Shown here in pieces: positions 1,022 through 28,895 of a DNA stretch of 42,000 nucleotides (within the stretch, counting starts at the first letter, position 1; every line of letters starts with the position of its first letter). The DNA is from Gammaproteobacteria bacterium (GTDB taxonomy: Bacteria > Pseudomonadota > Gammaproteobacteria > Steroidobacterales > Steroidobacteraceae). A program made the position numbers and the translations under genes. The notes under the pieces are model-generated. The model was given only the letters and a program-made list of their open reading frames with translations, ran no database searches and had not been told where the DNA came from. Location of the stretch: contig JAHFSF010000003.1 in the NCBI GenBank assembly GCA_023265875.1, positions 1 to 42,000 of the forward strand. Direction: 5' to 3'.

Positions 1022-2788
1022 GTGGAAGCGCAGGACGAGCGGACGCAGGTCGACCCGAGGGCCAATCCCTGGGCGATGCTGGCCTCGCTGCCGCTGTTTT
1101 CCGGCCTCCCGAAGTCCGTCATCGACGCGGCAGTGGCCGAACTCGAGTGGCTTGCCCTGCCTGGCGGCGAGCTGCTGTTCCAGTCCGGCGCACCGGCTGA
1201 TTCCGTGTATTTCGTCGTCAGCGGCTGTCTCGGCGCATTCGGCCCGGGCGGTGAACTCGTGGGTCGCATCGCCGCCGGCGAAAGCGTCGGCGAAATGGGA
1301 CTGATCGCCGCGCGCCCACGCGCGGTGACGGTCCGGGCATTGCGCGATTCGGAGCTTGCGCGGCTGTCGTCGGGCACATTCGAACGCGTGCTGCTCTCCC
1401 ACCCAGAGGCAATACTGCGGTTGGCGAAGCTCTCGGTGGAACGGCTCCTTGAAAACGCCCCGCCGCGCAGTTCGGCGCCGGCCGCGCCGCGAACGATCGC
1501 GGTCATGCCGCGCGACCTGTCCATCGACGTCGTCGCCCTCACTTCCAGCCTGGCCGGGGCCCTTGCCCGGCCGGGCCGCGTTGACCTGGTCGGCCGCGAC
1601 CGGGCGGAAAGGCACAGCAGCCAGTGGTTCCATGAGGTCGAATCGCGCAATGACTTCGTCGTGTACGCCGCTGAGCCTGGCGACACGACGTGGACACAAC
1701 TGTGCATTCGCCAGGCGGATGTCCTGCTGCTGGCCGCTCGCGCGGGAGATGAAGCCGGACCATGGCCCGGCCTCGACCGGCACGCGCATGCTGCGCAACG
1801 CGCTGAGTTGCTGCTCCTTCACGACGACCGGGTCGCCTGCGGCACGGCAGCGCGCTGGCGCCGGTTCCTCCCAGCCGTGCCCTGCCATCACTTGCGGCGG
1901 CCCACCGACATGCCGCGCATCGTGCGCCTGATGACTCACCGGGGGGTCGGCCTCGTGCTGTCAGGCGGTGGGGCACGCGGATTCGCGCACCTGGGTGTGG
2001 TGCGCGCGCTGCGCGAGCACGGTGTGCCGATCGATCTCGTCGGCGGCACCAGCATGGGCGGGATCCTCGCCGCGGGCGTCGCGGCAGACTGGAGCGACAG
2101 GGAACTGGTCGACCGATTCCGGCGGTGTTTCGTCGACACCAACCCGCTCACCGACTTCACGTTGCCGCTGGTATCGCTCGTTTCAGGCCGCAAGGTCGGC
2201 CAGCTGCTGCGTCGCGAATTCGGTGACATCGACATCGAGGACCTGCCCCTGCCGTTCTTCTGTGTCTCGTCGAATCTGACCACCGGGCGCATTGCGGTCC
2301 ATGAGCGCGGTCCGCTGTGGCGCTGGCTGCGTGCTTCAGTTGCGATTCCCGGTGTCCTGCCGCCGGTATTTCACGGCGGCCAGGTATTCGTCGACGGCGG
2401 CACCATGAACAACCTGCCGGTAGACGTGATGCGCGCCCAGGGCCGTGGTCCGGTGATCGGCGTCGACGTCGGCACCGATCCGACGTTCACGACCGAGATC
2501 GAGGCGACCGAGGCGCCCTCGCTATGGAACCTGTTCGGGCGCAGGCGCGACCGGCGCAGGCGCCCGAATATCCTGCAGATCCTGTGGCGTGCGGGCATGG
2601 TCAACAGCACGACCGCGACGCAGCAGCGTCGCGCCCAAAGCGACATGCTGCTGATGCCGCCGCTCGCTTCGCTCGACTTGCTGGACTGGAAGGCTTTTGA
2701 GCGTGCGATCGAGATCGGCTACCGCCACGCCTGCGAACAGCTGACCGGCGCCATGCCGGAGGGATTGCGGCAGGCAATGTCGGCATGA
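1022..2788 (+). CDS. Cyclic-nucleotide-binding/patatin-like phospholipase (NTE/RssA type)
   Basis: This 588-residue protein has two parts. Residues about 15-140 are a cyclic-nucleotide-binding domain (LASLPLFSGLPKSVIDA, then a GESVGEMGLIA phosphate-binding-cassette-like loop). Residues about 305-580 are a patatin phospholipase domain. The oxyanion-hole motif GGGARG is at 315-320, the nucleophile motif GTSMG at 342-346 (Ser344) and the catalytic Asp at 458 in VDGGTMNNLP. The architecture matches bacterial homologues of neuropathy target esterase, which hydrolyse phospholipids or lysophospholipids, possibly under nucleotide control. The middle (about 150-300) is a weakly conserved linker. The start is GTG; an ATG 18 codons in is an alternative. 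Its stop overlaps the next ATG (ATGA), so it is translationally coupled to the hydantoinase-type gene. Nothing visible suggests the catalytic site is lost. Confidence 0.92.
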   Translation: MEAQDERTQVDPRANPWAMLASLPLFSGLPKSVIDAAVAELEWLALPGGELLFQSGAPADSVYFVVSGCLGAFGPGGELVGRIAAGESVGEMGLIAARPRAVTVRALRDSELARLSSGTFERVLLSHPEAILRLAKLSVERLLENAPPRSSAPAAPRTIAVMPRDLSIDVVALTSSLAGALARPGRVDLVGRDRAERHSSQWFHEVESRNDFVVYAAEPGDTTWTQLCIRQADVLLLAARAGDEAGPWPGLDRHAHAAQRAELLLLHDDRVACGTAARWRRFLPAVPCHHLRRPTDMPRIVRLMTHRGVGLVLSGGGARGFAHLGVVRALREHGVPIDLVGGTSMGGILAAGVAADWSDRELVDRFRRCFVDTNPLTDFTLPLVSLVSGRKVGQLLRREFGDIDIEDLPLPFFCVSSNLTTGRIAVHERGPLWRWLRASVAIPGVLPPVFHGGQVFVDGGTMNNLPVDVMRAQGRGPVIGVDVGTDPTFTTEIEATEAPSLWNLFGRRRDRRRRPNILQILWRAGMVNSTTATQQRRAQSDMLLMPPLASLDLLDWKAFERAIEIGYRHACEQLTGAMPEGLRQAMSA

Positions 2789-5700
2789 ATGCCGCGCGCG
2801 GCTGGCAATTCTGGATCGACCGCGGCGGCACTTTCACCGACCTGATTGCACGCACACCCGACGGGCGATTGATCGTCGACAAGCGGCTGTCCGAGGACTC
2901 CGCTGCGGATCGCGACCCCGGCATCGCGGGCATCCTGGAGATACTCCGCCACCACGGCGGGCCCGATGCCAGCATCGACGTGGTCCGCATCGGCACGACC
3001 GTCGCGACGAACGCGCTCCTCGAACGCCGCGGCGTGGCGACGGGGCTCGTCATCACGGCCGGGTTTCGCGACGCGCTCGCGATCGGTTACCAGAACCGTC
3101 CCGAACTGTTCCGGCTCCGGATCGAGCAGCCGCAGCCGCTGTATCGAGAGGTCATCGAGGCCGACGAACGGATCACGGCCGACGGCGAGGTGCTGCGTTC
3201 ATTGGACGGGCATCGACTCGCCGCCGATCTCGGAAATCTGCGCGCGGCCGGAATCGGCAGCGTCGCAATCGTGCTGATGCATGGCTACCGGTACCCGGAA
3301 CACGAGCAGCAGGCGACGCTGCTCGCGCGGCAGGCAGGGTTCAGCGAAGTCATCGCCTCGCATGAGTCATCACCGTTGATCCGGCTCGTCAGCCGTGGCG
3401 ACACGACGGTCGTCGACGCCTACCTGACGCCGCTGCTCGCCACTTACGCGCGCCAGTTCCGGGCCGGCCTCGGCGACCGGCATCGGGACGTGCGACTGCA
3501 GTTCATGCAGAGCAATGGTGGCCTGGTCGCGCCAGAGGCATTTCGCGCAGCGAATGCCGTCCTGTCCGGTCCGGCCGGTGGGCTCGTGGGCACTGCGCGC
3601 GCAGGCAGGGCGCTCGGGCGCTCGCGACTGATCGCCTTCGACATGGGCGGTACCTCGACCGATGTTTCGCTGTACGACGACGGCTGCCCGGAACGGTACG
3701 AGACCACGATCGCCGGCGTGCGCCTGCAGACTCCGATGATGAACATCCACACGGTTGCCGCCGGGGGTGGCTCCGTGCTGCATTTCCAGGGTGGACGCCT
3801 CCGGGTCGGCCCGCAGTCGGCCGGCGCCAATCCCGGCCCGGCGTGCTATCGCCGTGGTGGTCCGCTGACGGTCACGGATCTCCAGGTCTTGCTCGGTCGC
3901 ATCCGGCCAGACTACTTCCCGGCAGTGTTCGGCCCGCGCCACGACCTGCCACTCGACGACGAGACGGTTCGACTTCGATTCGAGGGACTCGCCGCCGAGG
4001 CACCGGCGAGCACGGGCGCGACTGTGACGGTCGAGGAACTCGCGTCAGGATTCCTCGATGTCGCGGTCGAAACGATGGCGCGCGCCATCCGCCATGTCTC
4101 GGTGCGCCAGGGCCACGATCCAGCGGATTTCGCGCTGTTCTGCTACGGCGGCGCGGCGCCGCAGCATGCCTGCCGCGTCGCCGCTGCGCTCGGCATCGCC
4201 GAGGTGTTGATCCATCCACTGGCAGGCGTCCTGTCAGCCTGGGGCATCGGGCTCGCCGACCGCAGGCTGCAGCGGCGGCAGAGCATCGAGCTGCCGCTTG
4301 CGGCGACGGCCCCCCGGTCGCTGGCGCGTGAACTCGACGCGATGTGCGAGGGGCTTCGTGACTCCCTGATCGCGCAGGGCGCAGAGGCGCGCGAGCTGCA
4401 ATCGACGCGGGTCGTCGAACTGCGCGCGCGGGGTACGGAGACGGCGCTCGGCGTTCCCCTCGATGAAGCGCCGCGCATGCTCGCCCGATTCGCCGACGAA
4501 TTCCACCGGCGGTTCGGATTTGCTCCCGACCTCGACGGCGTGGTGGTCGCGACACTGCGCGCCGAGGTTCTTGCGCCTGGCGAAGCCGCACCCGGAAGCG
4601 CGGCGCAACCCGGCTCGCCCCCGGTGACGATACGCGCTGGCTGCGCCCGGGCCTGGTTCGATGGCTGGCGCGAGATACCCGTCATCGATCGCACCGGCCC
4701 CGGCCTTGCGGGAATGATCGCGGGCCCCGCGCTGATCGTCGAGCCGAACTCGACGACCGTCGTCGAGCCGGGCTGGACCGCGCGCAGGCTCGAGGGTGGC
4801 GAACTGCTGCTGGCGCGCAGCGCCGCCGGCACGGCCGCCCTCGCGCCGCTCCGCGAGCCGGATCCGGCGCTGCTCGAGATCTACAACCACCGGTTCATGC
4901 AGGTCGCCGAGCAGATGGGCGCGGTGCTGCAGTCGACCGCCGTTTCGGTGAACATCCGCGAGCGGCTTGATTTCTCCTGCGCATTGTTCGACTCGCAGGG
5001 CGCGCTGATCGCAAACGCGCCGCACATGCCCGTGCACCTCGGCTCGATGGGCGCGAGTGTGCGTTCCGTGATCGAGCGCAATGCCGGTGAAATGCGCCCG
5101 GGTCGCGCCTGGATGCTGAATGACCCCTACGCCGGCGGCACGCACCTGCCGGACATCACCGTCGTGACTCCGGTCTTCGTGGATGGCGATGACGACCCGG
5201 CCTGCTATGTCGCCTCGCGCGCTCACCACGCCGACGTTGGCGGCATCACGCCGGGTTCGATGCCGCCGGACAGCTGCAGCATCGATCAGGAAGGCGTGCT
5301 GATCGACAATTTCCTGCTGGTGGATGGCGGTCGCCTGCGCGAGCCGGAATTGCTGGCATTGCTGGCCTCGGGGCCGTGGCCGGTACGCAATCCCGGCCAG
5401 AATGTCGCCGACCTGAAGTCCCAGCTCGCCGCCAATGCGCGCGGGCGCGCCGAATTCGAACGCCTGATCAGGCTCCACGGTCGCGGGCAGGTCGGCGCCT
5501 ACATGGCCCACGTGCAGGACAACGCCGAGGACCACGTGCGCGAAGTGATCGGGCGCTTGTCCGACGGCCATTATCGCTATGAGCTGGACGACGGCAGCGC
5601 GATCGAAGTCGCGGTGACGATCAACCGGTCGGCGCGCTCGGCCATCGTGGATTTCGCGGGAACTTCAGCGCAGGGTCCGGGGAATTTCAACGCACCGCGC

Positions 5701-6390
5701 GCGGTCTGCACGGCCGCCGTGCTATATGTGTTCCGCACGCTGATCGACGCCGACATACCGCTCAATGAGGGTTGCCTGCGCCCGCTCGACATCCGGGTCG
5801 CGCCCGGTTCGATGCTGAGTCCGTTGTGGCCGGCCGCGGTCGTCGCCGGCAATGTCGAGACGTCGCAGTGCATCGTCGACGCGCTGTACGGGGCGCTGGG
5901 CGCACTGGCCGCGTCGCAGGGCACGATGAACAACCTCACGTTTGGCGATGCCGGGCGACAGTATTACGAGACGATTGCCGGCGGCGCCGGTGCGGGACCG
6001 GGATTCGACGGCGCTTCCGGCGTGCACACGCACATGACCAATTCGCGGCTGACCGATCCTGAAGTGCTCGAGGCCCGCTATCCGGTGCTGGTCCGGGAAT
6101 TCCGCTACCGACGCGGATCCGGCGGCGCAGGCCGGCATCGCGGTGGCGACGGTCTGGTCCGGCACATCGAATTCCGCGCGCCGATGACCGCTTCCATCCT
6201 GTCGAACCATCGGCGCATTGCACCTTTTGGTCTCGCGGGCGGCAGCGATGGCGCAACCGGCATCAACCGGCTGAAGCTGGCGCGTGGCGGGACCCGGGAA
6301 CTGCCGGCGTGTGCCAGCGTCGAGGTGGAAACGGGCGACGCATTGGTCATCGAAACGCCCGGCGGCGGCGGTTACGGCAGGTGGCAGTGA
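2785..6390 (+). CDS. HyuA-HyuB fusion, 5-oxoprolinase/hydantoinase type
   Basis: This 1201-residue protein joins both subunits of ATP-dependent hydantoinase/5-oxoprolinase in one chain. Residues 1 to about 685 are HyuA: the N-terminal [11 protein letters not shown] nucleotide-binding loop, [14 protein letters not shown], and the actin-like [14 protein letters not shown]. Residues about 690-1200 are Hyu[40 protein letters not shown] and a glycine-rich [15 protein letters not shown] segment. Members hydrolyse a cyclic amide such as 5-oxoproline or hydantoin with ATP; the single-chain form of about 1200-1300 residues is typical of 5-oxoprolinase. I cannot fix the substrate from sequence. The ATG lies in an ATGA overlap with the phospholipase gene, and the stop overlaps a possible GTG start of the next gene, indicating one operon. 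Confidence 0.93.
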
Positions 6391-6410
6391 CGCACGACGA
6401 TGATTTTCAG

Positions 6411-9400
6411 ATGAATGCGACGGCGTCAGCGCGCGGCCTGCGGCTGCGTTGGCTGCGCTGGCTGGTCGGTGCCGCCATCGTCGCTGCGGTGATTGTCGCG
6501 GCGCTCAAGCTGTCCGAGGAACAGGAGATCTGGCGGCTGCTGCGCACCGCAGAGCCAGTCTGGATCCTGGTCGCGCTACTGGCCCAGCTCGGCACCTACC
6601 TTACGCAAGGCGAGATCTGGCGTATCGTCACACGCGCCGCCGGCCAGCCGCTGGCGCTCGGCGTCGCGGCAAAGCTGAGCCTCGCGAAGCTGTTCGTCGA
6701 CCAGGCCCTGCCGTCCAGCGGCATCAGTGGCACCGCATTGTTCGCCCGTGCACTGGAGCAGCGCGGGACGCCGCGGCCCGTGTTGATGGCGGCCGTATCC
6801 GTCAACCTCGTCTCGTATTTTGCCGCCTACGTCATCTGCCTGATCGCCGCGCTCGCGGCCTTGCTCCTCGAGGGGCATGCGAATGCGTTGATCCTCGTTT
6901 CCGGCATCCTGTTTGGCGCGGCTTCGATGCTGGTCATCAGCGCACTGCTCGCGTTGTCAGGTCGCGTCGGGCGGACCTTTGCGAACCGCGCGGCCCATTG
7001 GCCACTGCTGGGTCCGACCATGCGCCTGCTGACCGAGGCGGACCGACGCCTGTCTCATGAGCCGCGCTTGTTGGGGCTGGCCATCGCGCTACAACTGGCG
7101 ATCGTGCTGCTTGACGCCTTGACGGTATGGATGTTGCTCGCCGCGGTTGGCAGCTGGGCAGCGCCGGGCGCCGTGTTCGCAAGTTTCGTGATCTCGAGCA
7201 TGCTGCGGTCGATCAGCATTGTGCCCGGCGGACTGGGGATATTTGAGGCAGCATCGGTGTTGACGCTCAAGATTGCAGGCGTGCCGCTACCGGCCGCGCT
7301 GTCGGCAACCCTGATGTTCCGCGGCCTGAGCTTCTGGCTGCCGATGCTACCCGGCATGGTCCTGTCGCGCCGCGTTGCTGCGAATGGCCGTGTCGTTGCG
7401 CCGCAGGCCGTACCCGAAACATATTGGGCCAGGACCGCCGATGTCATCGCCGCTGGACTCGCGACGGCGCGTCGCGGTCTGTCGCAGCGGGAAGCTGCGC
7501 GGAGGCTCGAGTCCATCGGCCCGAACGAGTTCCGCGAGCACCGGAAAGCCACTCAGGGGTGGCTGCTCTGGAAGCAGATTCGCAGTCCGTTGCTGCTGTT
7601 GCTGGCGTTCGCGGCAGTGGTTTCCGCGGCTACCGGCGCGTGGCTGGACGCATCGATCGTCTTCGCGATTCTCGCCGCATCGGTCATCGTCGGATATTCG
7701 CGGGAACAACGCGCTGAGTCGGCGTTGGCAAGGCTCCGCTCGAGGATCGCAACGCGCACGGTCGTGCTTCGCGATGGCGAGCCGCGGCAGATTCCCGTGC
7801 GCGAGGTCGTGCCAGGCGACGTCGTGCAACTGTCGGCCGGCGCACTGGTTCCCGCCGACGCGCTGCTGTTCGAGGCCGCCGACCTGTTCGTCAACGAGGC
7901 ACTGCTGACCGGCGAGAGCTTTCCGGTCGAGAAGACGACGAAAGCCAGCGAGCCGGAGGCAGGCGTCGCCGCGCGACGCAATTGCGTGTTCCAGGGCACC
8001 AATGTCCGTAGCGGCAGCGCGCGTTGCCTGGTCGTCGCGACCGGTGCCAGCACGGAGTTCGGCGCGATCGCGCACCGCCTGGTGCTGCGTCCTCCCGAAA
8101 CCGAGTTCGAACGCGGGGTCCGGCGATTCGGCTACCTGCTGACGAGCACGATGCTGGCGATCGTGCTCGTCGTATTCGCGATCAATCTGATGCTTGGCCG
8201 GCCGCTGAGCGAGACCCTGCTGTTTTCGATCGCCCTGGCGGTCGGGCTGAGTCCGGAACTGCTGCCTGCGATCCTGAGCGTGAACCTCGCACGCGGCGCC
8301 CAGTTGCTGGCGGATCATGGCGTGCTGGTGCGCTCCCTGAACGCGATCGAGAATCTCGGCAGTATCGACATCCTGTGCACCGACAAGACCGGCACGTTGA
8401 CGGAAGGGATCGTGAGGCTGGATGGCGCCTGGGATGACGATGGCCTGGCGTCGCCGGAAATCGCGCGGCTCGCCGCCTGCAATGCCGCGCTGCAGACGGG
8501 GCTCGCAAATCCGCTCGACGAGGCGATCCTGCGCGCCGGTCCGGCGCCGGCGGGCGTCAGCAAGATCGCGGAAATCCCCTACGACTTCGTTCGCAAGCGC
8601 CTGAGCGTCGTCATGCGCGACGACGGTGTGATCCGCCTGGTGACCAAGGGCGCATTCGAAAGCGTGCTGGCCACCTGCACCAGGCTTCGGTCCGGTCAGC
8701 CGCTTGACGATATCGCGCGGGGCAAGTTGCTGGCGCGATACGAGGAGTGGGGCCGATCCGGCATCCGGACGCTGGCGGTCGCGGCCCGCGACATCGACTT
8801 GCGCGCCAGCTACGGGCGCAGCGACGAAGCCGCGCTCACGTTCATGGGATTCCTGACGTTCCTGGACCGGCCGCGGGACGGCACGCGGGAAGCGATCGTG
8901 ACGCTCCAGGGCCTCGGTGTTTCGATCAAGCTGATCACGGGTGACAACCGGCTCGTGGCCGCCCAGGTCGCCGGGGCGGTCGGCCTGCCGGCCGACCGCG
9001 TGATCACGGGCCGCCAGCTCGACGAGTTGCACGACCATGCGTTGTTGCGCGCTGCCGAGAATATCACCCTGTTCGCCGAGGTCGACCCGAACCAGAAGGA
9101 GCGCATCATCCAGGCGCTGCGCCGGTCCGGGCACGTCGTCGGCTTCCTCGGCGACGGAGTCAACGACGCGCCGGCAATGCACGCCGCCGACGTCAGCCTG
9201 TCCGTGGACACAGCCGTCGATGTCGCACGCGAGGCGGCCGATTTTGTGCTGCTCGACCGGGATCTCGAGGTCATCCGGCGCGGAATCGAGGAAGGACGCC
9301 GCACTTTCGCGAATACACTGAAATACATCCTGATGACGACCAGCGCGAATCTCGGCAACATGATCAGCATGGCGCTGGCGTCGCTGGTGCTGCCATTCCT

Positions 9401-9920
9401 GCCGCTGCTGGCCAGCCAGATCCTGCTCAACAATTTCCTGTCGGACCTGCCGGCATTCGGCCTTGCGACCGATACGGTCGATCGCGAACTCGTCGACAGG
9501 CCGCGGCGCTGGAGCATACCGTTCATCGGTCGCTTCATGATCGAGTTCGGACTCCTGAGTTCGCTGTTTGACTTCGCGACGTTCGGGGTCCTGCTGCTGG
9601 TCTTCATGGCGGACGCATCGCTGTTCCGTACCGGCTGGTTCCTCGAATCGCTGTTGAGCGAGCTCGTCATCGCGATCATCGTCAGGACTCGACGGCGGTT
9701 TTACCGCAGCCGGCCCGGTCAGCTGCTGCTGACCTCGACGCTCGGTGTCGCAGCACTCGCGATCGTCCTGCCTTACACGCCGATAGCGCCGCTGCTCGGC
9801 TTCGAGCCATTGCCCCCGGGCGTGCTGGCGGCGATCGTCGGAATCACGGCGCTTTACGCCATCGTCACCGAGTTCGCCAAGGGCCGGTTCTTCCGTTCAG
9901 CGGAACCCGCGCGGCTCTAG
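6411..9920 (+). CDS. LPG-synthase/YbhN-type membrane domain fused to P3B (MgtA-like) P-type ATPase
   Basis: This 1169-residue membrane protein has two distinct modules. Residues about 15-320 resemble the flippase-like membrane domain of lysylphosphatidylglycerol synthases and YbhN/AglD proteins, with several helices and segments such as ALPSSGISGTALFARAL and SISIVPGGLGIFEA. From about 335 there is a full P-type ATPase: TGES (500-503), phosphorylation motif DKTGTLT (Asp658), LITGDN and the hinge GDGVND (914-919). The M4 motif VGLSPELLPAI and the NNFLSDLPAFGLATD region in the membrane resemble the P3B magnesium importer MgtA. The catalytic residues are intact. ATG 6411 is chosen; GTG 6387, overlapping the upstream stop as GTGA, is an alternative, and neither has a strong Shine-Dalgarno. 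The stop overlaps the convergent sheath gene. Magnesium transport is an inference; the role of the N-terminal module is unknown. Confidence 0.88.
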   Translation: MNATASARGLRLRWLRWLVGAAIVAAVIVAALKLSEEQEIWRLLRTAEPVWILVALLAQLGTYLTQGEIWRIVTRAAGQPLALGVAAKLSLAKLFVDQALPSSGISGTALFARALEQRGTPRPVLMAAVSVNLVSYFAAYVICLIAALAALLLEGHANALILVSGILFGAASMLVISALLALSGRVGRTFANRAAHWPLLGPTMRLLTEADRRLSHEPRLLGLAIALQLAIVLLDALTVWMLLAAVGSWAAPGAVFASFVISSMLRSISIVPGGLGIFEAASVLTLKIAGVPLPAALSATLMFRGLSFWLPMLPGMVLSRRVAANGRVVAPQAVPETYWARTADVIAAGLATARRGLSQREAARRLESIGPNEFREHRKATQGWLLWKQIRSPLLLLLAFAAVVSAATGAWLDASIVFAILAASVIVGYSREQRAESALARLRSRIATRTVVLRDGEPRQIPVREVVPGDVVQLSAGALVPADALLFEAADLFVNEALLTGESFPVEKTTKASEPEAGVAARRNCVFQGTNVRSGSARCLVVATGASTEFGAIAHRLVLRPPETEFERGVRRFGYLLTSTMLAIVLVVFAINLMLGRPLSETLLFSIALAVGLSPELLPAILSVNLARGAQLLADHGVLVRSLNAIENLGSIDILCTDKTGTLTEGIVRLDGAWDDDGLASPEIARLAACNAALQTGLANPLDEAILRAGPAPAGVSKIAEIPYDFVRKRLSVVMRDDGVIRLVTKGAFESVLATCTRLRSGQPLDDIARGKLLARYEEWGRSGIRTLAVAARDIDLRASYGRSDEAALTFMGFLTFLDRPRDGTREAIVTLQGLGVSIKLITGDNRLVAAQVAGAVGLPADRVITGRQLDELHDHALLRAAENITLFAEVDPNQKERIIQALRRSGHVVGFLGDGVNDAPAMHAADVSLSVDTAVDVAREAADFVLLDRDLEVIRRGIEEGRRTFANTLKYILMTTSANLGNMISMALASLVLPFLPLLASQILLNNFLSDLPAFGLATDTVDRELVDRPRRWSIPFIGRFMIEFGLLSSLFDFATFGVLLLVFMADASLFRTGWFLESLLSELVIAIIVRTRRRFYRSRPGQLLLTSTLGVAALAIVLPYTPIAPLLGFEPLPPGVLAAIVGITALYAIVTEFAKGRFFRSAEPARL

Positions 9921-11539
9921 GTGCTGTGCGCGACCTGCAGTTCGAGTTTCTGAACCGCCTGCATGACGCCGGTGCCTGGCACACCGGTCAGGTTGGGGCT
10001 GACCGCCTGCACGCTGCTGCCGCCGGCCCGATGACTGACCAGATAGGCGTGGAATTCGCCGGTCCGCGCTGCCGCAAATCCGAACAACAGGTTCACGATG
10101 CCACGCTCGCGCTGGCGTTGGTGGTTGACCCGCTCGTCGCAAAGCACGAACCAGCGGTCACCCGGTTCGCGGCAGGTGAAGGCACCCCGCTGATCCAGCG
10201 AGGCGAGGAACGAACCCACCTGCGCCGCCGCGCGCCGCCACGTCACGGCATCGTTTGCTTCGAACAGCATCCAGCGCGTGCCGCGCTCGATGCTGTTGAT
10301 GATCATCAGCGACAACCGCCGCGCCGGCAGCGAGCGCCAGTCCGCCGCCGCGGCGCCCCGCCCGGCCAGCGTACAGGCGACCGGCGCCGCGCGCCCCGGC
10401 CTCCGGATCGTCTGCACCGTGTTGACGCCGCAGGCCGCGAGCCGCTGGCGGGCCTCGTCATCGACGGCGCACAGTGGCCGCAATCCCGGGCGCAGGACCG
10501 AATCCTCGCCGCAGTTCGTGGACCAGACCGGCGACTGCTCGGCCGCGCGTGACAGCGTGCCGGCCACGGCTCCGCAGGGAGCGAATGCCTCGAACCGGCC
10601 GCGCAACTTGTCGTAGCCGAGCAGCCTCGGGAAGAACATGCAGGCAGTGTCGCTCGGCAGCGGCCAGTTGCGCATTTCCCCGAGCGCCTTCGTGGCCGTG
10701 TCCCAGGCCAGCGGCGGGTCGACGAAGAGCAGCGCCCGGCGCTTGCGGCAATAGCGGTTGGCGACCAGCAGCGTGCTCGCACCGACGTCCGACTCGCGCG
10801 CGAGCGGCGGGATGCAGAGCAGGTTGAATATATCAACCGCTTCCAGCGCGAACAGGCCGGTGCTGCGGGCGGCGGAACCGATCAGGTCGTAGTCGGATAG
10901 CGGGCCGCCGTCATCACCATCCGGATTGGAGGTAACGTAACCGGCGATTCCGTGCGGGTCGTTGCGCGGCGTCTGTTCGGGGCGCACGGGCGGGACCGCG
11001 TTCACGACCTTCACCAGCTGTGACTCGGCGAGCACCGGGACGACGTAGCGCGCGGCTTCCGGCCGCACCGACAGCCGGCGGTAGATTTCCTGGTCCTCGA
11101 TGTGCTCGGAGCCCGGCGTACGCACGCGCTGCAGCACCAGGTTGAAGCGATCGTCCTCGTTGTCGCCGATGCCGTCATAGTCAACCGCGGCGCGGAGGAA
11201 TTCGCGCGTTCCCGGCGCCAGCGCCTGCAGCTCGAGCCCACCGGCGCCCGCCGGCAACTGCAGCGTGCAGCAGCGCGCGCCGTTTGCCACCCGCACGACG
11301 ACCGCTGCGCGGCCGCCATTTTCGAAATACTGTTCGACCGCATAGGAAAGCGTGCTCGGCTGCCAGAGGCCGCCGAACACGCGCTGGAAGTCCGTGAAAC
11401 TGGCGAGCGGCACCGGCCGGTTGACCGGCCCGCGCAGACTGCGGCCAACGAAGGCAGTGATCGCCGTCGGCGCTTCGGCAATGGCCTGCTCGAAACCGGC
11501 TTCTTCGTGGACCTGTATGCCGGCCAGTCTTTCCGCCAC
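9917..11539 (-). CDS. Phage-type contractile tail sheath protein (orphan)
   Basis: This 540-residue protein has the layout of contractile tail sheath proteins of phages and phage-like injection systems. At the N-terminus there is a PGVYVEE-like strand (LAGIQVHEE) followed by APTAITAFVGRSLRGPVNRP and FTDFQRVFGG. The centre carries the subtilisin-like sheath region (YFENGGRAAVVVRVANG, then LLFVDPPLAWDTATKALGEM). The conserved C-terminal domain includes RGTRWMLFEAND (FEAND at 426-430), GDRWFVLCDERVN and a beta-strand-rich end. The GTG start has GGGAG six bases upstream (11546-11550). No tube, baseplate, spike, terminase or integrase gene lies in the window; the neighbours are a P-type ATPase and an EamA transporter. 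The frame is intact, which argues against a decayed prophage scrap, but whether it works with a system elsewhere is unknown. Confidence 0.87.
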   Translation of the reverse strand: MAERLAGIQVHEEAGFEQAIAEAPTAITAFVGRSLRGPVNRPVPLASFTDFQRVFGGLWQPSTLSYAVEQYFENGGRAAVVVRVANGARCCTLQLPAGAGGLELQALAPGTREFLRAAVDYDGIGDNEDDRFNLVLQRVRTPGSEHIEDQEIYRRLSVRPEAARYVVPVLAESQLVKVVNAVPPVRPEQTPRNDPHGIAGYVTSNPDGDDGGPLSDYDLIGSAARSTGLFALEAVDIFNLLCIPPLARESDVGASTLLVANRYCRKRRALLFVDPPLAWDTATKALGEMRNWPLPSDTACMFFPRLLGYDKLRGRFEAFAPCGAVAGTLSRAAEQSPVWSTNCGEDSVLRPGLRPLCAVDDEARQRLAACGVNTVQTIRRPGRAAPVACTLAGRGAAAADWRSLPARRLSLMIINSIERGTRWMLFEANDAVTWRRAAAQVGSFLASLDQRGAFTCREPGDRWFVLCDERVNHQRQRERGIVNLLFGFAAARTGEFHAYLVSHRAGGSSVQAVSPNLTGVPGTGVMQAVQKLELQVAHST

Positions 11540-25550: not shown

Positions 25551-26579
25551 TCAGTCCTGCTGCCATTCGGCGCGGTAATTCCGGCCAAGCGAGATGATGC
25601 GCTCGAGCAGCGCCGGATATTCGATGCCATCGTGCCGCGCCGCGCTCGCGAAATCCTCCTCTTCCGCCAGGTTCGGATTGGCGTTTGCCTCGAGCACGAA
25701 TGGCGTTCCATCGGTGCGCACGCGGAAATCCATGCGTGCATATCCCGACAGGTGCAGCGCCCGGTAGATCCGCCGGGTCAGGCGGTTAAGTTGCCCGGCG
25801 AGTCCCGCCGGCACGTCAACGGCGGCGCCGGTCGTGATCCGGTGCCGCGCCTGGTAGGAACTGTCCCACTTGACGCGTCGGGTCGCGATCGCAGCGCTGC
25901 CATTCTTCAGCTCGCCAAACGACAATTCCCATGGGGTCAGCGTGCGGATCCTCCCGTTGCCGAGCACGCCGACATACAACTCGCGGCCCTCGATGAATTC
26001 CTCGACCAGCGCGTCGGACTTCGTGTGCTCGTGGATGAACTCGATGCGCTCGCGCAACCGCAAGGCGGCGTCGACGACCGAGGCCTGCGCGATCCCGAGC
26101 GAAGCGTCCTCGGTCGCGGACTTGACGAACAGGGGATAACGCAGGCGCGCCGGGATCCTTATCGCGTGACCGCGCTTGAACACGGCGAAGTGCGGCGTCC
26201 GGATGCGGTGGTAGGCCAGTATCTGCTTGCACAGTACCTTGTGGCGCGACAGCATCATGCCGCGCGGGTTACAACCCGTGTAGTGCTGGCGCAGCAACTC
26301 GAGGAAGGCAACGACGTGCTGGTCGTAGGTGACGATGCCGCCGAATTCCTCGAGCAGGTTGAAGCAGACCTGCGGCTGCCATTCGTGGATCACCGAACGC
26401 AACGCGCCCAGGCTGTCGCCTATTCCCAGCGGGCGCACATCATGTCCGTTCAGGCGCAACCGGGTGACGACGTCGAACTCGGTGCGGAACTCATCCGCCT
26501 CGCGCGTCGTGCAGTGGTCGAGCGTCTCCGGCGGAACCAGGCTCTCGTGGACGATCACCAGCACGCGCAGCCTCTTCAA
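25551..26579 (-). CDS. D-Ala-D-Ala ligase-like ATP-grasp protein
   Basis: This 342-residue protein is an ATP-grasp ligase of the D-alanine-D-alanine ligase superfamily. It has an N-terminal Rossmann-like part (LRVLVIVHESLVPPET), the central ATP-binding part (RYPLFVKSATEDASLGI, then DALVEEFIEGRELYVGVLG) and the C-terminal metal-binding strand FVLEANANPNLAEEEDFA with the conserved Glu and Asn-x-Asn. Such proteins join a carboxylate to an amine via an acylphosphate; the substrate here is unknown, and the operon context does not suggest cell-wall synthesis. The start is TTG overlapping the upstream stop (TTGA), indicating coupling; a GTG five codons later (26564) has AGAGG six bases ahead and is an alternative. 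It is the last gene of the operon with the M32 peptidase, ttcA and the phosphatase/ARH fusion. Confidence 0.87.
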   Translation of the reverse strand: MKRLRVLVIVHESLVPPETLDHCTTREADEFRTEFDVVTRLRLNGHDVRPLGIGDSLGALRSVIHEWQPQVCFNLLEEFGGIVTYDQHVVAFLELLRQHYTGCNPRGMMLSRHKVLCKQILAYHRIRTPHFAVFKRGHAIRIPARLRYPLFVKSATEDASLGIAQASVVDAALRLRERIEFIHEHTKSDALVEEFIEGRELYVGVLGNGRIRTLTPWELSFGELKNGSAAIATRRVKWDSSYQARHRITTGAAVDVPAGLAGQLNRLTRRIYRALHLSGYARMDFRVRTDGTPFVLEANANPNLAEEEDFASAARHDGIEYPALLERIISLGRNYRAEWQQD

Positions 26580-28078
26580 GTGGCCCGCCGCATTCTCTGG
26601 TCGAACAGCGTATCCGCCAGCGCCTCGATTTCCGCGCCGCGCGCAAGCGTGGCGCGCCAGCGCGCCGGCAGGGCCGCCGCGCCATAGTGCGCACCGGCAA
26701 GTTGCCCGACGATTGCCGCCGTCGTATCAGCGTCGCCGCCCAGGCCCGCCGCCGCCAGCAGGCAATCCCGCGGATTGCTGCCGCGCTCGAAGGCCCACAA
26801 CGCAGCCTGCAGCGCGGCGCTCGCGGCGTGCGTGCCGGTGAATATCGCCCGCGGTTTCTTGCCGCGCCATGAACCGGAGGCGATGTCCCGTATCCGCGGC
26901 TTCAGCGCGATCGAATCCCAGAGGCCCGGCCGCGGGCTGTAGAGCGGAGCCAGCAATTCGTCCCTGGCTGCGCCCCTGAGCGCCCCGGCAATCAGTCCCG
27001 CAAGGTAGCGCACGGCATCCACCGTCAGCGGCGCCTGGTGGGTGATGCGCGCGCAGTTGATCGCCGCCTCGACCGCCTGTCGCGTGTCTTCGCAGAAGAA
27101 AGCGACGGCCGGCCCGATCCGCGCCAGCGGTTCGGCGTCCGCATGCGCCGGGTCATGCGACCCCGCATAGGGATTGCCCGTCCACTGCGCGGTCGCGATC
27201 GCGCGGGCGGTGGCCATGCTCGCGCCGACGCAGGATCCGGTGCTCGACCAGTGTCCCTCCTGCCGCCATCGCTGGTAGCGCCGCAACTGGTCGGAGGCAT
27301 CGAATCCACCGCGCGCAACCAGGCTCTCGGCCAGGCACAGCGCCATCGCCGCCTTGTCGGCCCAGGCGCCGGCGGGAAGCGCGTGGGGGCCGCCACCGGC
27401 GAAATCATCGCGCGCGACGAACGTGCCAGCCCGCAGACCGCGCACCGCCTGGGCAAGCGCGTCGCCAGTCGCAAGGCCCAGCAACATTCCGCGAAACCGG
27501 TCGCGCATGTCCCCGGCCGGCGCCATCGCGGGCGGTGGCGCCGCAGCATGCGCCCGACCGGCGCGCCAGTCGCGCACGAAATCCGACTGCGCGGCGGTTT
27601 CGGGCACGGCCGGCCAGGAACGCGACCGCGCACTTTCCTGCCACAGTTCGTTCAGGCGCACCAATGCCGCGTCGCCGGACAGGCCGCCCTGCGCGAGCCA
27701 GCAACCGGCGACGAGATTCGTGCGGCCGATACCGGCACGGCAGTGCAGGTAGACGCGCCTGCCATTGGCCAGTGCCGCATCCAGCTGGTCCAGGATTCGT
27801 TCCATGTGGCCGGTCGACTCGGGCAAGCCGTGATCCTGGATCGGCATGCGCAGGTAGGTGACGGCACTGCCCGAGTCGGGCCGCGGCAGCAGCTTTTCGT
27901 ACTCTTCCACTTCCCCGGGTGCGGTCAGGTCCAGGAAGCAGTCGATGCCCGCATCGAGCAACTGGCGCAGCCGGTCGCGCGTCGCCTCGTCGCCGGGACC
28001 CGCGGGATACTCGCCTGCAAGGATGCGTCCCGGTTCCAGCCAGTAACTGTTCGGCAGTGGCCTCGGCAGTGGCGCCAC
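26576..28078 (-). CDS. Tyrosine/dual-specificity phosphatase fused to ADP-ribosylglycohydrolase-like domain
   Basis: This 500-residue protein has two enzyme-like domains. Residues about 10-175 are a dual-specificity/tyrosine phosphatase: the P-loop HCRAGIGRTN (Cys113, Arg119) is complete, and the likely general acid is the Asp in MPIQDHGLP. Residues 191-500 are an ADP-ribosylglycohydrolase (DraG/ARH) fold: RFRGMLLGLATGDALAQA at its start and GGDADTTAAIVGQLAG at its end. The first metal motif, normally W-T-D-D-T, reads WADKAAMAL, so one Asp and both Thr are lost, while the C-terminal D-x-D-T is kept. The second domain may be impaired or changed. GTG 28078 begins one base after the ttcA stop, and the end overlaps the ATP-grasp gene start. 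The longer upstream frame is a shadow of ttcA. Confidence 0.86.
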   Translation of the reverse strand: MAPLPRPLPNSYWLEPGRILAGEYPAGPGDEATRDRLRQLLDAGIDCFLDLTAPGEVEEYEKLLPRPDSGSAVTYLRMPIQDHGLPESTGHMERILDQLDAALANGRRVYLHCRAGIGRTNLVAGCWLAQGGLSGDAALVRLNELWQESARSRSWPAVPETAAQSDFVRDWRAGRAHAAAPPPAMAPAGDMRDRFRGMLLGLATGDALAQAVRGLRAGTFVARDDFAGGGPHALPAGAWADKAAMALCLAESLVARGGFDASDQLRRYQRWRQEGHWSSTGSCVGASMATARAIATAQWTGNPYAGSHDPAHADAEPLARIGPAVAFFCEDTRQAVEAAINCARITHQAPLTVDAVRYLAGLIAGALRGAARDELLAPLYSPRPGLWDSIALKPRIRDIASGSWRGKKPRAIFTGTHAASAALQAALWAFERGSNPRDCLLAAAGLGGDADTTAAIVGQLAGAHYGAAALPARWRATLARGAEIEALADTLFDQRMRRAT

Positions 28079-28079
28079 T

Positions 28080-28895
28080 TCAGCTACCGGGGCTGCCGGC
28101 CAATCGTTCGAGCGCGGCGAAATCGAAAGTGCGCACGTCAGCCAGCTGCGATGGTTCCACATTGCAGAGCGCCGTGAATATCGAGTCCACGCGCCCGGGA
28201 TGCTCGCGCTCCCAGTCGGCGAGCATCCGCCCGATGGCTTCGCGCTGCAGGTTCGGCTGTGAACCACAGAGCGTGCAGGGAATGATCGGGAATGCGCGCG
28301 CACGGGCATAGCGCGCGATTTCGCGCTCCGGCACGTAGCACAGCGGCCGGATCACGACATTGCTGCCGTCGTCGGACAGGAGCTTCGGCGGCATCGCCTT
28401 CAGGCGTCCGCCGTGGAACAGGTTCAGGAACAGCGTCTCGATGATGTCGTCGCGGTGGTGCCCCAGCGCAATCCGCGTGTAACCCCGTTCGCGGGCAAAC
28501 CGGTAGAGGGCGCCGCGGCGCAGCCTGCTGCACAAGCCGCATTGCGTGCGACCCTCGGGGATCACGCGGCGCACGACGCTGTAGGTGTCCTGCTCGATGA
28601 CGTGAAACGGAACCCCCATTCCATCGAGATATTCCGGCAGCACGCGCGCCGGGAAGCCCGGTTGTTTCTGGTCGAGGTTGACTGCGGCGAGTTCGAAGCG
28701 CACCGGTGCCGCGCGCTGCAGCGACAGCAGCATGTCGAGCAGCGTGTAGGAGTCCTTGCCGCCCGACAGGCAGACCATGACGCGGTCGCCGTCGCCGATC
28801 ATGTTGAAGTCCGCAATGGCCTTGCCGACCAGGCCGCGGAGCCTGGCGGCCAGGCGCCGGAAATTGGCCGAAGTTTCCCCGCGCAGCGGAATCAT
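28080..28895 (-). CDS. ttcA: tRNA 2-thiocytidine(32) synthetase TtcA
   Basis: This 271-residue protein adenylates and thiolates cytidine 32 of certain tRNAs. It has the PP-loop SGGKDS (residues 44-49), the first cysteine pair in [12 protein letters not shown] and the second in [13 protein letters not shown], which together hold the [4Fe-4S] cluster. [17 protein letters not shown] is the conserved central segment. Length and motifs fit the gammaproteobacterial TtcA group. It lies 9 bp after the M32 peptidase gene and is followed, after one base, by the phosphatase/ARH fusion, so it sits inside an operon. Cysteines and P-loop are all intact. Confidence 0.95.

What the first reader, a model, noticed from the sequence alone, without database searches (positions are those of the whole stretch)
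6411..9920. Flippase-like membrane module fused to an intact P3B-type ATPase
Seen: an LPG-synthase/YbhN-like helical domain of about 300 residues joined in one frame to a P-type ATPase with TGES, DKTGTLT and GDGVND all intact. Known: the two modules normally occur in separate proteins, one moving lipid-linked molecules and one pumping Mg2+. Inference: the pump may drive or sense transport through the lipid module, for example coupling cation state to lipid head-group handling. The operon with a patatin phospholipase (1022-2788) fits a lipid link.
Basis: partly seen in the sequence, partly recalled or inferred. Interest (0 to 1): 0.75.

Follow-up and report, generated by a model that had tools for sequence, protein, structure and literature searches.

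The report
Lipid flippase fused to magnesium pump
One gene encodes a membrane protein in which a phospholipid-moving module is joined to a magnesium-importing pump; the same pair recurs, fused or as neighbouring genes, in many distant bacteria, which points to a shared job linking membrane lipids and magnesium uptake.

Summary
One uninterrupted 1169-residue frame (6411-9920) joins an MprF-type phospholipid-translocase domain (LPG_synthase_TM, residues 17-315) to a complete MgtA-type Mg2+ pump (TIGR01524, above cut-off). It is no assembly error: 19 further genomes carry the intact fusion, among them Azotobacter vinelandii, Pseudomonas, Peristeroidobacter, Myxococcus and Anaeromyxobacter. In other bacteria the two modules are separate adjacent genes, in every order and orientation; 29 control loci of the same Pfam family had no such pump beside them. 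Fused flippase domains fall in one clade, their pumps in several (one clade rejected, p 9e-92): one flippase type was combined with different MgtA lineages. The predicted flippase fold matches MprF (Z 20-22, next 6) and keeps its gate pair and head-group acid; the pump keeps its close Mg2+ ligands. The patatin/HyuAB neighbours have no match in 80 related loci. Most likely the flippase module scrambles phospholipid and supplies or retains the anionic lipids that MgtA needs; this coupling is inferred. ATP-driven flipping is unsupported: MprF is reported to need no energy, and three Pseudomonas strains keep the flippase under purifying selection without the pump half. A new combination of known parts, rare in evenly drawn samples.

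The parts
6411..9920 (+). fused flippase-MgtA gene, 1169 aa from the ATG at 6411
6459..7355 (+). LPG_synthase_TM / MprF subdomain-1-like lipid translocase domain (residues 17-315)
   Evidence: Pfam; AlphaFold model and PDB comparisons
7113..7115 (+). D235, equivalent of RtMprF D234 (lipid head-group acid)
   Evidence: alignments; invariant in 34 flippase domains
7245..7247 (+). E279, equivalent of RtMprF gate residue E280
7320..7322 (+). R304, equivalent of RtMprF gate residue R304
7377..7421 (+). short linker (about residues 323-337) between the two modules; residues 326-332 have pLDDT under 50
7422..7625 (+). Cation_ATPase_N (residues 338-405)
7746..8315 (+). E1-E2_ATPase / actuator region (residues 446-635); TGES at 7908-7919
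8364..9191 (+). P/N catalytic domain (residues 652-927); DKTGTLT at 8382-8402, GDGVND at 9150-9167
9357..9359 (+). N983, equivalent of the MgtA M5 Mg2+ ligand N706 (numbering of PMC13174805)
   Evidence: alignment; invariant in 32 pumps
9396..9881 (+). Cation_ATPase_C (residues 996-1157); Mg2+-site equivalents S1050, D1054 (M7) and S1080, S1083 (M8)
1022..2788 (+). neighbour: NTE-type patatin phospholipase with cNMP-binding domain; no match in the related loci
   Evidence: 0 of 80 loci
2785..6390 (+). neighbour: HyuA-HyuB (hydantoinase/oxoprolinase) in one frame, ends 20 bases before the fusion; no match in the related loci
   Evidence: 0 of 80 loci

Best explanation
A two-module inner-membrane protein. 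The C-terminal module is an MgtA-type (P3B) Mg2+ importer. The N-terminal module is an MprF-subdomain-1-type phospholipid translocase tethered by about 15 residues to the pump's N-terminus, in the place where E. coli MgtA has a disordered, lipid-binding tail. Most likely the translocase passively scrambles phospholipid between leaflets beside the pump. That would keep anionic lipid (PG, cardiolipin), which MgtA needs for activity, available around the pump and rebalance the leaflets when Mg2+ is scarce. ATP drives Mg2+ import only. Shown here: domain content, intact catalytic motifs and close Mg2+ ligands, predicted MprF fold with conserved gate residues, recurrent fusion and gene adjacency. 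Reported elsewhere: MgtA's dependence on anionic lipid; energy-independent scrambling by P. aeruginosa MprF. Inferred: that this module scrambles lipid, which lipid it moves, and that this tunes the pump.
For: Fusion intact in the window and 19 other genomes. Of 80 flippase loci kept (of 210 relatives found), 13 are fused, 1 is fused with a broken frame, 18 have a separate MgtA-like pump with at most 1.3 kb between the matched stretches (17 of them at most 468 bp), 2 have a pump fragment next to them, 3 have a pump within 6 kb. Control: 0 of 29 other PF03706 loci (the best-scoring matches of a 56-genome class sample, flanks up to 1.5 kb) have such a pump. Among the 18, four pumps lie upstream and five downstream on the same strand, seven are divergent and two convergent, so one inherited operon does not explain the pairing. 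Pumps of fused proteins sit in at least four places of the tree, one clade rejected, while all fused flippase domains lie in one 25-row clade with SH-aLRT 100. Fold: six MprF chains at Z 20.1-21.8, next chain 6.0. D235, E279 and R304 invariant in 34. N983, S1050 and D1054 invariant in 32 pumps including E. coli MgtA, S1080 in at least 90%. Detergent-purified MgtA regains ATPase activity with PG (30-fold) and cardiolipin (100-fold) (PMC4758953 section 7); cardiolipin is modelled at M7 next to Lys764 (PMC13174805 passages), which is R1041 here. E. coli YbhN of the same domain family is reported near cardiolipin-synthesis genes (PMC11980842 passage citing a preprint).
Against: No activity was measured and no lipid substrate is known; PMC8131360 (passage) argues that PG and cardiolipin would not bind well in MprF's inner cavity. 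43 of the 80 loci show no MgtA-like pump nearby (several contigs are short), and of 29 of these 43 genomes that I searched, 14 have no TIGR01524 match at E <= 1e-150, so the module also exists without MgtA. Where the pump half is missing in three Pseudomonas strains the flippase stays under purifying selection (dN/dS 0.057-0.085). Evenly drawn samples show rarity: only the window is fused among 369 class genomes and among 59 near relatives; 1 of 30 phylum-sample MgtA loci has the flippase beside it. The aromatic cardiolipin contact Trp768 is Glu here, and both tyrosines of MprF's YRXXY motif are replaced.
Confidence: 0.5

Rival explanations
1. The pump's ATP cycle drives or gates lipid translocation through the N-module: an ATP-coupled lipid flippase or Mg2+-lipid co-transporter.
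For: Covalent link with a short linker; the same flippase lineage joined to several pump lineages.
Against: P. [quoted passage not shown] flippase kept under selection where the pump half is missing; separate-gene pairs in all orientations do not look like an obligate energy-coupled machine; the pump is below the P4 lipid-flippase model's cut-off (TIGR01652 61.5 bits, cut-off 431.25).
Confidence: 0.12
2. The N-module is mainly a membrane anchor, assembly or lipid-binding regulator of the pump, in place of MgtA's lipid-binding N-terminal tail, and no longer moves lipid.
For: It sits where E. coli MgtA has a poorly conserved tail reported as disordered and binding anionic vesicles (PMC10925321 passages); MprF's YRXXY tyrosines are lost.
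Against: Gate pair and head-group acid invariant in 34 sequences; stand-alone relatives persist under strong purifying selection; the whole MprF subdomain-1 helix layout is predicted.
Confidence: 0.18
3. The two modules act independently in one stress response (low Mg2+ or membrane stress); linkage and fusion only secure co-expression.
For: Several separate pairs on plasmids lie among universal stress proteins, BON-domain proteins, alcohol dehydrogenase or Hsp20; Cpn60 or Usp genes near two Pseudomonas fusions examined (L088, L090).
Against: Does not by itself explain covalent fusion with pumps of at least four tree positions.
Confidence: 0.18
4. Sequencing or assembly artefact joining two genes near 7400.
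For: The window comes from a 222-contig draft genome.
Against: Same architecture in 19 other genomes, one of them titled a complete sequence.
Confidence: 0.02

Closest known systems
MgtA, Mg2+-transporting P3B ATPase (TIGR01524; PDB 8uy7, 9byb)
   Same: Whole pump: 749 bits (cut-off 610.75), catalytic motifs, gating Glu (E616), Mg2+-site N983, S1050, D1054, S1080; full model matches 8uy8 at TM 0.86 of the target.
   Different: Carries an N-terminal flippase module; Mg2+-site S702 is Ala and T824 is Ser; the window pump lies in a clade apart from E. coli MgtA.
MprF flippase subdomain 1 (PDB 6lvf, 7duw, 9goe, 7f47)
   Same: Fold over about residues 9-328 (Z 20.1-21.8), helix layout TM1-2, 3a/3b, 4-6, 7a/7b, 8, D/E/R equivalents of D234, E280, R304.
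   Different: No synthase domain in the protein; the pump follows where MprF has subdomain 2 (RtMprF 334-530 per PMC8131360 passage); YRXXY not kept.
PplT / LPG_synthase_TM proteins, incl. YbhN and fusions to other enzymes (Hauser et al. 2022 preprint, known here only as cited in PMC11980842)
   Same: Same domain family as the citing passage treats it: the MprF transport domain is often fused to lipid-modifying enzymes.
   Different: Partners named in that passage are O-antigen ligases and glycosyltransferases; the preprint itself was not readable, so it may list P-type ATPases.

Membership tests
MgtA Mg2+ P-type ATPase (TIGR01524) | score above the curated equivalog cut-off | tested here: met
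   749 bits, cut-off 610.75; four other fusions tested score 735-829
MgtA Mg2+ P-type ATPase (TIGR01524) | catalytic motifs TGES, DKTGT, GDGxND | tested here: met
   residues 500, 658, 914
MgtA Mg2+ P-type ATPase (TIGR01524) | M5/M7/M8 Mg2+-coordinating residues (N706, D777, S821 close; S702, S773, T824 further off; PMC13174805 passages) | tested here: met
   the three close ligands (N983, D1054, S1080) and S773 (S1050) kept; of the further ones S702 is Ala and T824 is Ser
MgtA Mg2+ P-type ATPase (TIGR01524) | Mg2+ import activity | not testable with these tools
   -
LPG_synthase_TM (PF03706) translocase domain | Pfam gathering score over the full model | tested here: met
   120.6 bits, cut-off 33.4, positions 1-302 of 302
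LPG_synthase_TM (PF03706) translocase domain | MprF subdomain-1 fold and gate pair | tested here: met
LPG_synthase_TM (PF03706) translocase domain | lipid translocation activity | not testable with these tools
MprF (bifunctional flippase/synthetase, NF033480) | aminoacyl-PG synthase domain in the same protein and NF033480 cut-off | tested here: not met
   no LPG_synthase_C among the Pfam hits; 71.7 bits, cut-off 600
P4 lipid-flippase ATPase (TIGR01652) | score above curated cut-off | tested here: not met
   61.5 bits, cut-off 431.25

The most novel reading that the evidence does not exclude
A lipid-gated Mg2+ import machine: the MgtA cycle and the tethered scramblase are conformationally coupled, so that anionic phospholipid carrying Mg2+ is passed between leaflets as the pump turns over. 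This would be a mechanistic union of ion pumping and lipid translocation in one polypeptide, assembled repeatedly in evolution.
Probability: 0.12. Interest if true: 0.85.

Novelty: new variant of a known kind. Interest (0 to 1): 0.6.

Why it matters
MgtA is strongly dependent on anionic lipids; how its lipid surroundings are controlled is, to my knowledge, open, and many MprF-type translocase domains have no assigned task (also recalled). A recurrent fusion and gene pair of exactly these two modules gives a direct, testable link: a single polypeptide in which lipid scrambling and Mg2+ uptake can be measured and uncoupled by point mutants. It also suggests a function for a subgroup of stand-alone flippase-like proteins found beside mgtA, for example on Sphingobium and Sphingomonas plasmids.

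Tried and rejected
Assembly error: rejected by 19 other genomes with the fusion.

Patatin/HyuAB as functional partners: tblastn of both (and of two other window neighbours) found no match in the 80 related loci (flanks of at most 6 kb). Pfam on a few chosen neighbours of fused genes gave varied genes: PEP-synthase-like in Peristeroidobacter, alpha-amylase in Azotobacter, Cpn60 in P. veronii, universal stress proteins in Pseudomonas sp. UMAB-08.

Regulatory RNA (M-box or mgtA leader): no Rfam match at gathering score in the window or in 11 related loci searched, 9 of the 13 fused ones plus L126 and L109.

First genome-contig scan with a single window sequence found no relative; the profile A1 did. 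A profile search of PDB sequences with A1 found nothing at E <= 0.1, so the MprF relation rests on NCBIfam (below MprF's own cut-off), fold (103, 106) and hhalign (104; probability 91.6 global, 88.1 local).

AU test of a single clade for fused flippase domains did not finish in two runs. The pump tree is a 'quick' tree with two long branches meeting (L012, L159); the AU p-value carries that caveat, and the group was chosen for its architecture. L083 was labelled 'adjacent' by the script and relabelled 'fused' by hand on the evidence; L097 was relabelled 'fused, broken'. In one search one control row (L185) was dropped as too short, and the labels of L113 and L117 were set to 'adjacent' by hand. 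For one search I gave 29 of the 43 genomes without a linked pump.

Plasmid counter-examples: of 16 plasmid records with the flippase I looked at seven; Rhizobium sp. NLR16a has no mgtA within 8 kb of it, and in Rubrobacter a flippase relative sits beside a lysyltransferase-domain gene, with mgtA about 12 kb away.

Literature: no paper on such a fusion among the listings (open PMC library only; of the two papers I looked into PMC8131360, and did not open PMC7997004). The most relevant preprint (Hauser 2022) is not held.
Full report
WHAT IS THERE. The frame 6309-9920 (+) is open; the ATG at 6411, 20 bases after the stop of the HyuAB-like gene, gives 1169 residues. Pfam assigns LPG_synthase_TM to residues 17-315 and P-type ATPase domains to 338-1157, all above their cut-offs. 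NCBIfam scores the pump as a Mg2+-translocating P-type ATPase (TIGR01524, 749 bits, cut-off 610.75) and the N-terminus as flippase-like (TIGR00374, 64.8 bits, cut-off 43.2); MprF as a whole (71.7 of 600) and the P4 lipid flippase (61.5 of 431.25) are not met. The host is a draft genome of 2.31 Mb in 222 contigs, 77.5% complete. Elsewhere it has a separate gene with an aminoacyl-PG synthase domain (C200; a weak flippase-domain match lies in the same open frame length) and a second, 35% identical cation pump (C197).

FOLD AND RESIDUES. AlphaFold2 with 42 rows gives mean pLDDT 87.3 and pTM 0.70 for the whole protein; the linker residues 326-332 are below 50. Foldseek ranks E. coli MgtA first (8uy8, TM 0.86 of the target). 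For the N-module alone (pLDDT 88.3, pTM 0.83) all 6 chains at E <= 0.001 are MprF, and the second aligner gives these Z 20.1-21.8 with the next chain at 6.0. Its helices repeat the layout described for MprF subdomain 1: TM1-2, 3a/3b, 4-6, 7a/7b, 8 (PMC8131360, passages). Alignments place D235, E279 and R304 on RtMprF D234 (head-group acid) and the E280-R304 gate; the step from the R. etli chain to RtMprF numbers uses an offset of 2 that I read off the residues named in the paper. All three are invariant in 34 flippase domains. MprF's YRXXY tyrosines are not kept. In the pump, N983, D1054 and S1080 match the three close Mg2+ ligands and S1050 a further one; S702 is Ala and T824 is Ser here (numbering of PMC13174805 passages; my index offset of +7 rests on the catalytic Asp361). 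N983, S1050 and D1054 are invariant in 32 pumps including E. coli MgtA, and S1080 is kept in at least 90%.

RECURRENCE. A profile of ten flippase domains found 210 relatives in the genome collection, of which the best 80 were kept. In 13 the MgtA-like pump follows in the same frame: Myxococcus xanthus AM003, Peristeroidobacter soli, Anaeromyxobacter oryzisoli, a Gammaproteobacterium MAG, Azotobacter vinelandii CA and eight Pseudomonas strains. P. corrugata has the same fusion with a broken frame. A further 18 have a separate pump with at most 1.3 kb between the matched stretches (17 at most 468 bp): same strand with the pump upstream (4) or downstream (5), divergent (7), convergent (2); 2 have a pump fragment next to them and 3 have a pump within 6 kb; 43 have none of these, some on short contigs, three of them with a more distant P-type ATPase of 29-32% identity nearby. 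On plasmids, Sphingomonas panacis has mgtA and the flippase gene overlapping by 4 bases, and three Sphingobium plasmids have them divergent; in Ensifer they lie about 8 kb apart; in Rhizobium sp. NLR16a there is no mgtA within 8 kb. That makes 19 other genomes with an intact fusion.

RARITY AND CONTROLS. Evenly drawn samples show the fusion to be rare: among 59 near relatives and 369 genomes of the class only the window is fused; two of the three strongest other class matches have a separate pump beside the flippase (L070 divergent, L071 same strand 11 bp apart), the third has none in 18 kb (L069). Of 29 other LPG_synthase_TM loci, the best-scoring ones of 56 class genomes, none has an MgtA-like pump in flanks of up to 1.5 kb. 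From the pump side, 1 of 30 best TIGR01524 loci of a 249-genome phylum sample has the flippase beside it. So adjacency marks this flippase subgroup, not MgtA at large. Of the 29 genomes (of 43) with an unlinked flippase that I searched, 14 have a TIGR01524 pump above cut-off elsewhere, against 35 of 249 in the phylum sample; the two sets are not matched for taxonomy, so this is only suggestive.

HISTORY. All 14 fused flippase domains (and the broken one) lie in one 25-row clade with SH-aLRT 100; of the other ten rows one is adjacent to a pump and nine have none nearby, one of these (L121) being cut by its contig end. Their pumps do not group: the window and Peristeroidobacter, Pseudomonas plus Azotobacter, the two Myxococcota, and the Gammaproteobacterium MAG sit apart (at least 4 changes), and holding the 15 pumps as one clade is rejected (p 8.7e-92; quick tree, long branches present). 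One flippase lineage has thus been combined with several MgtA lineages, or has exchanged its pump. In Pseudomonas sp. MWU13-2105, MWU13-2100 and FEN, which nest among the fused Pseudomonas rows, the flippase half stands alone; the locus of MWU13-2105 and FEN aligns with the fused locus of P. veronii on both sides of the missing pump half, and dN/dS among the three flippase domains is 0.057-0.085. Loss of the pump half before the three parted is the simplest reading. All three genomes have one or two MgtA genes elsewhere.

MECHANISM. MgtA regains ATPase activity with PG (30-fold) and cardiolipin (100-fold) (PMC4758953, section 7), cardiolipin is modelled on M7 by the Mg2+ site (PMC13174805, passages), and the N-terminal tail in isolation is reported to be disordered and to bind anionic vesicles (PMC10925321, passages). 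P. [quoted passage not shown] against this, PMC8131360 (passage) argues that PG and cardiolipin suit MprF's inner cavity poorly. The plainest reading is that a passive phospholipid translocase, held at the pump's N-terminus or made beside it, controls the anionic lipid around MgtA or rebalances the leaflets under low Mg2+. The helix count puts the N-module's C-terminus on the cytoplasmic side if its N-terminus is cytoplasmic, which fits MgtA's cytoplasmic N-terminus (inference). ATP-driven lipid movement is possible but unsupported.

NOVELTY. Both families are known. PMC11980842 cites a preprint on fusions of this translocase domain to other enzymes (passages and reference list; preprint not held). 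Eight searches of the open PMC library listed no paper that I recognised as describing a fusion with a P-type ATPase, which does not exclude one elsewhere.

Noticed in passing
9917-11539 (-): 540-aa protein overlapping the fusion's stop by 4 bases on the other strand; weak phage tail sheath C-terminal match (20.8 bits, below the 26.9 cut-off).
   Followed up: no
26576-28309 (-): One frame with an ADP-ribosylglycohydrolase domain and a DSP-type phosphatase domain: another unusual-looking domain pair.
   Followed up: no
2785-6390 (+): HyuA and HyuB homologues in one 1201-aa frame, overlapping the patatin gene by 4 bases.
   Followed up: no
L035:8725-9087 and L036:11164-11733: In two genomes of the same family only fragments were found: flippase residues 238-322 at 59% identity and pump residues 971-1163 at 62%; they look like relics of lost copies.
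   Followed up: partly
L089, L092, L095: Pseudomonas strains with the pump half of the fusion missing and the flippase half retained, dN/dS 0.057-0.085.
   Followed up: yes
L068, L075, L076, L079, L080: Plasmid flippase/mgtA pairs lie among genes for universal stress proteins, BON-domain proteins, alcohol dehydrogenase, Hsp20 or phosphoketolase, in varying sets.
   Followed up: partly
L104, L123, L160: Flippase relatives near P-type ATPases only 29-32% identical to this pump; the flippase may partner other pump classes.
   Followed up: no
   Followed up: partly
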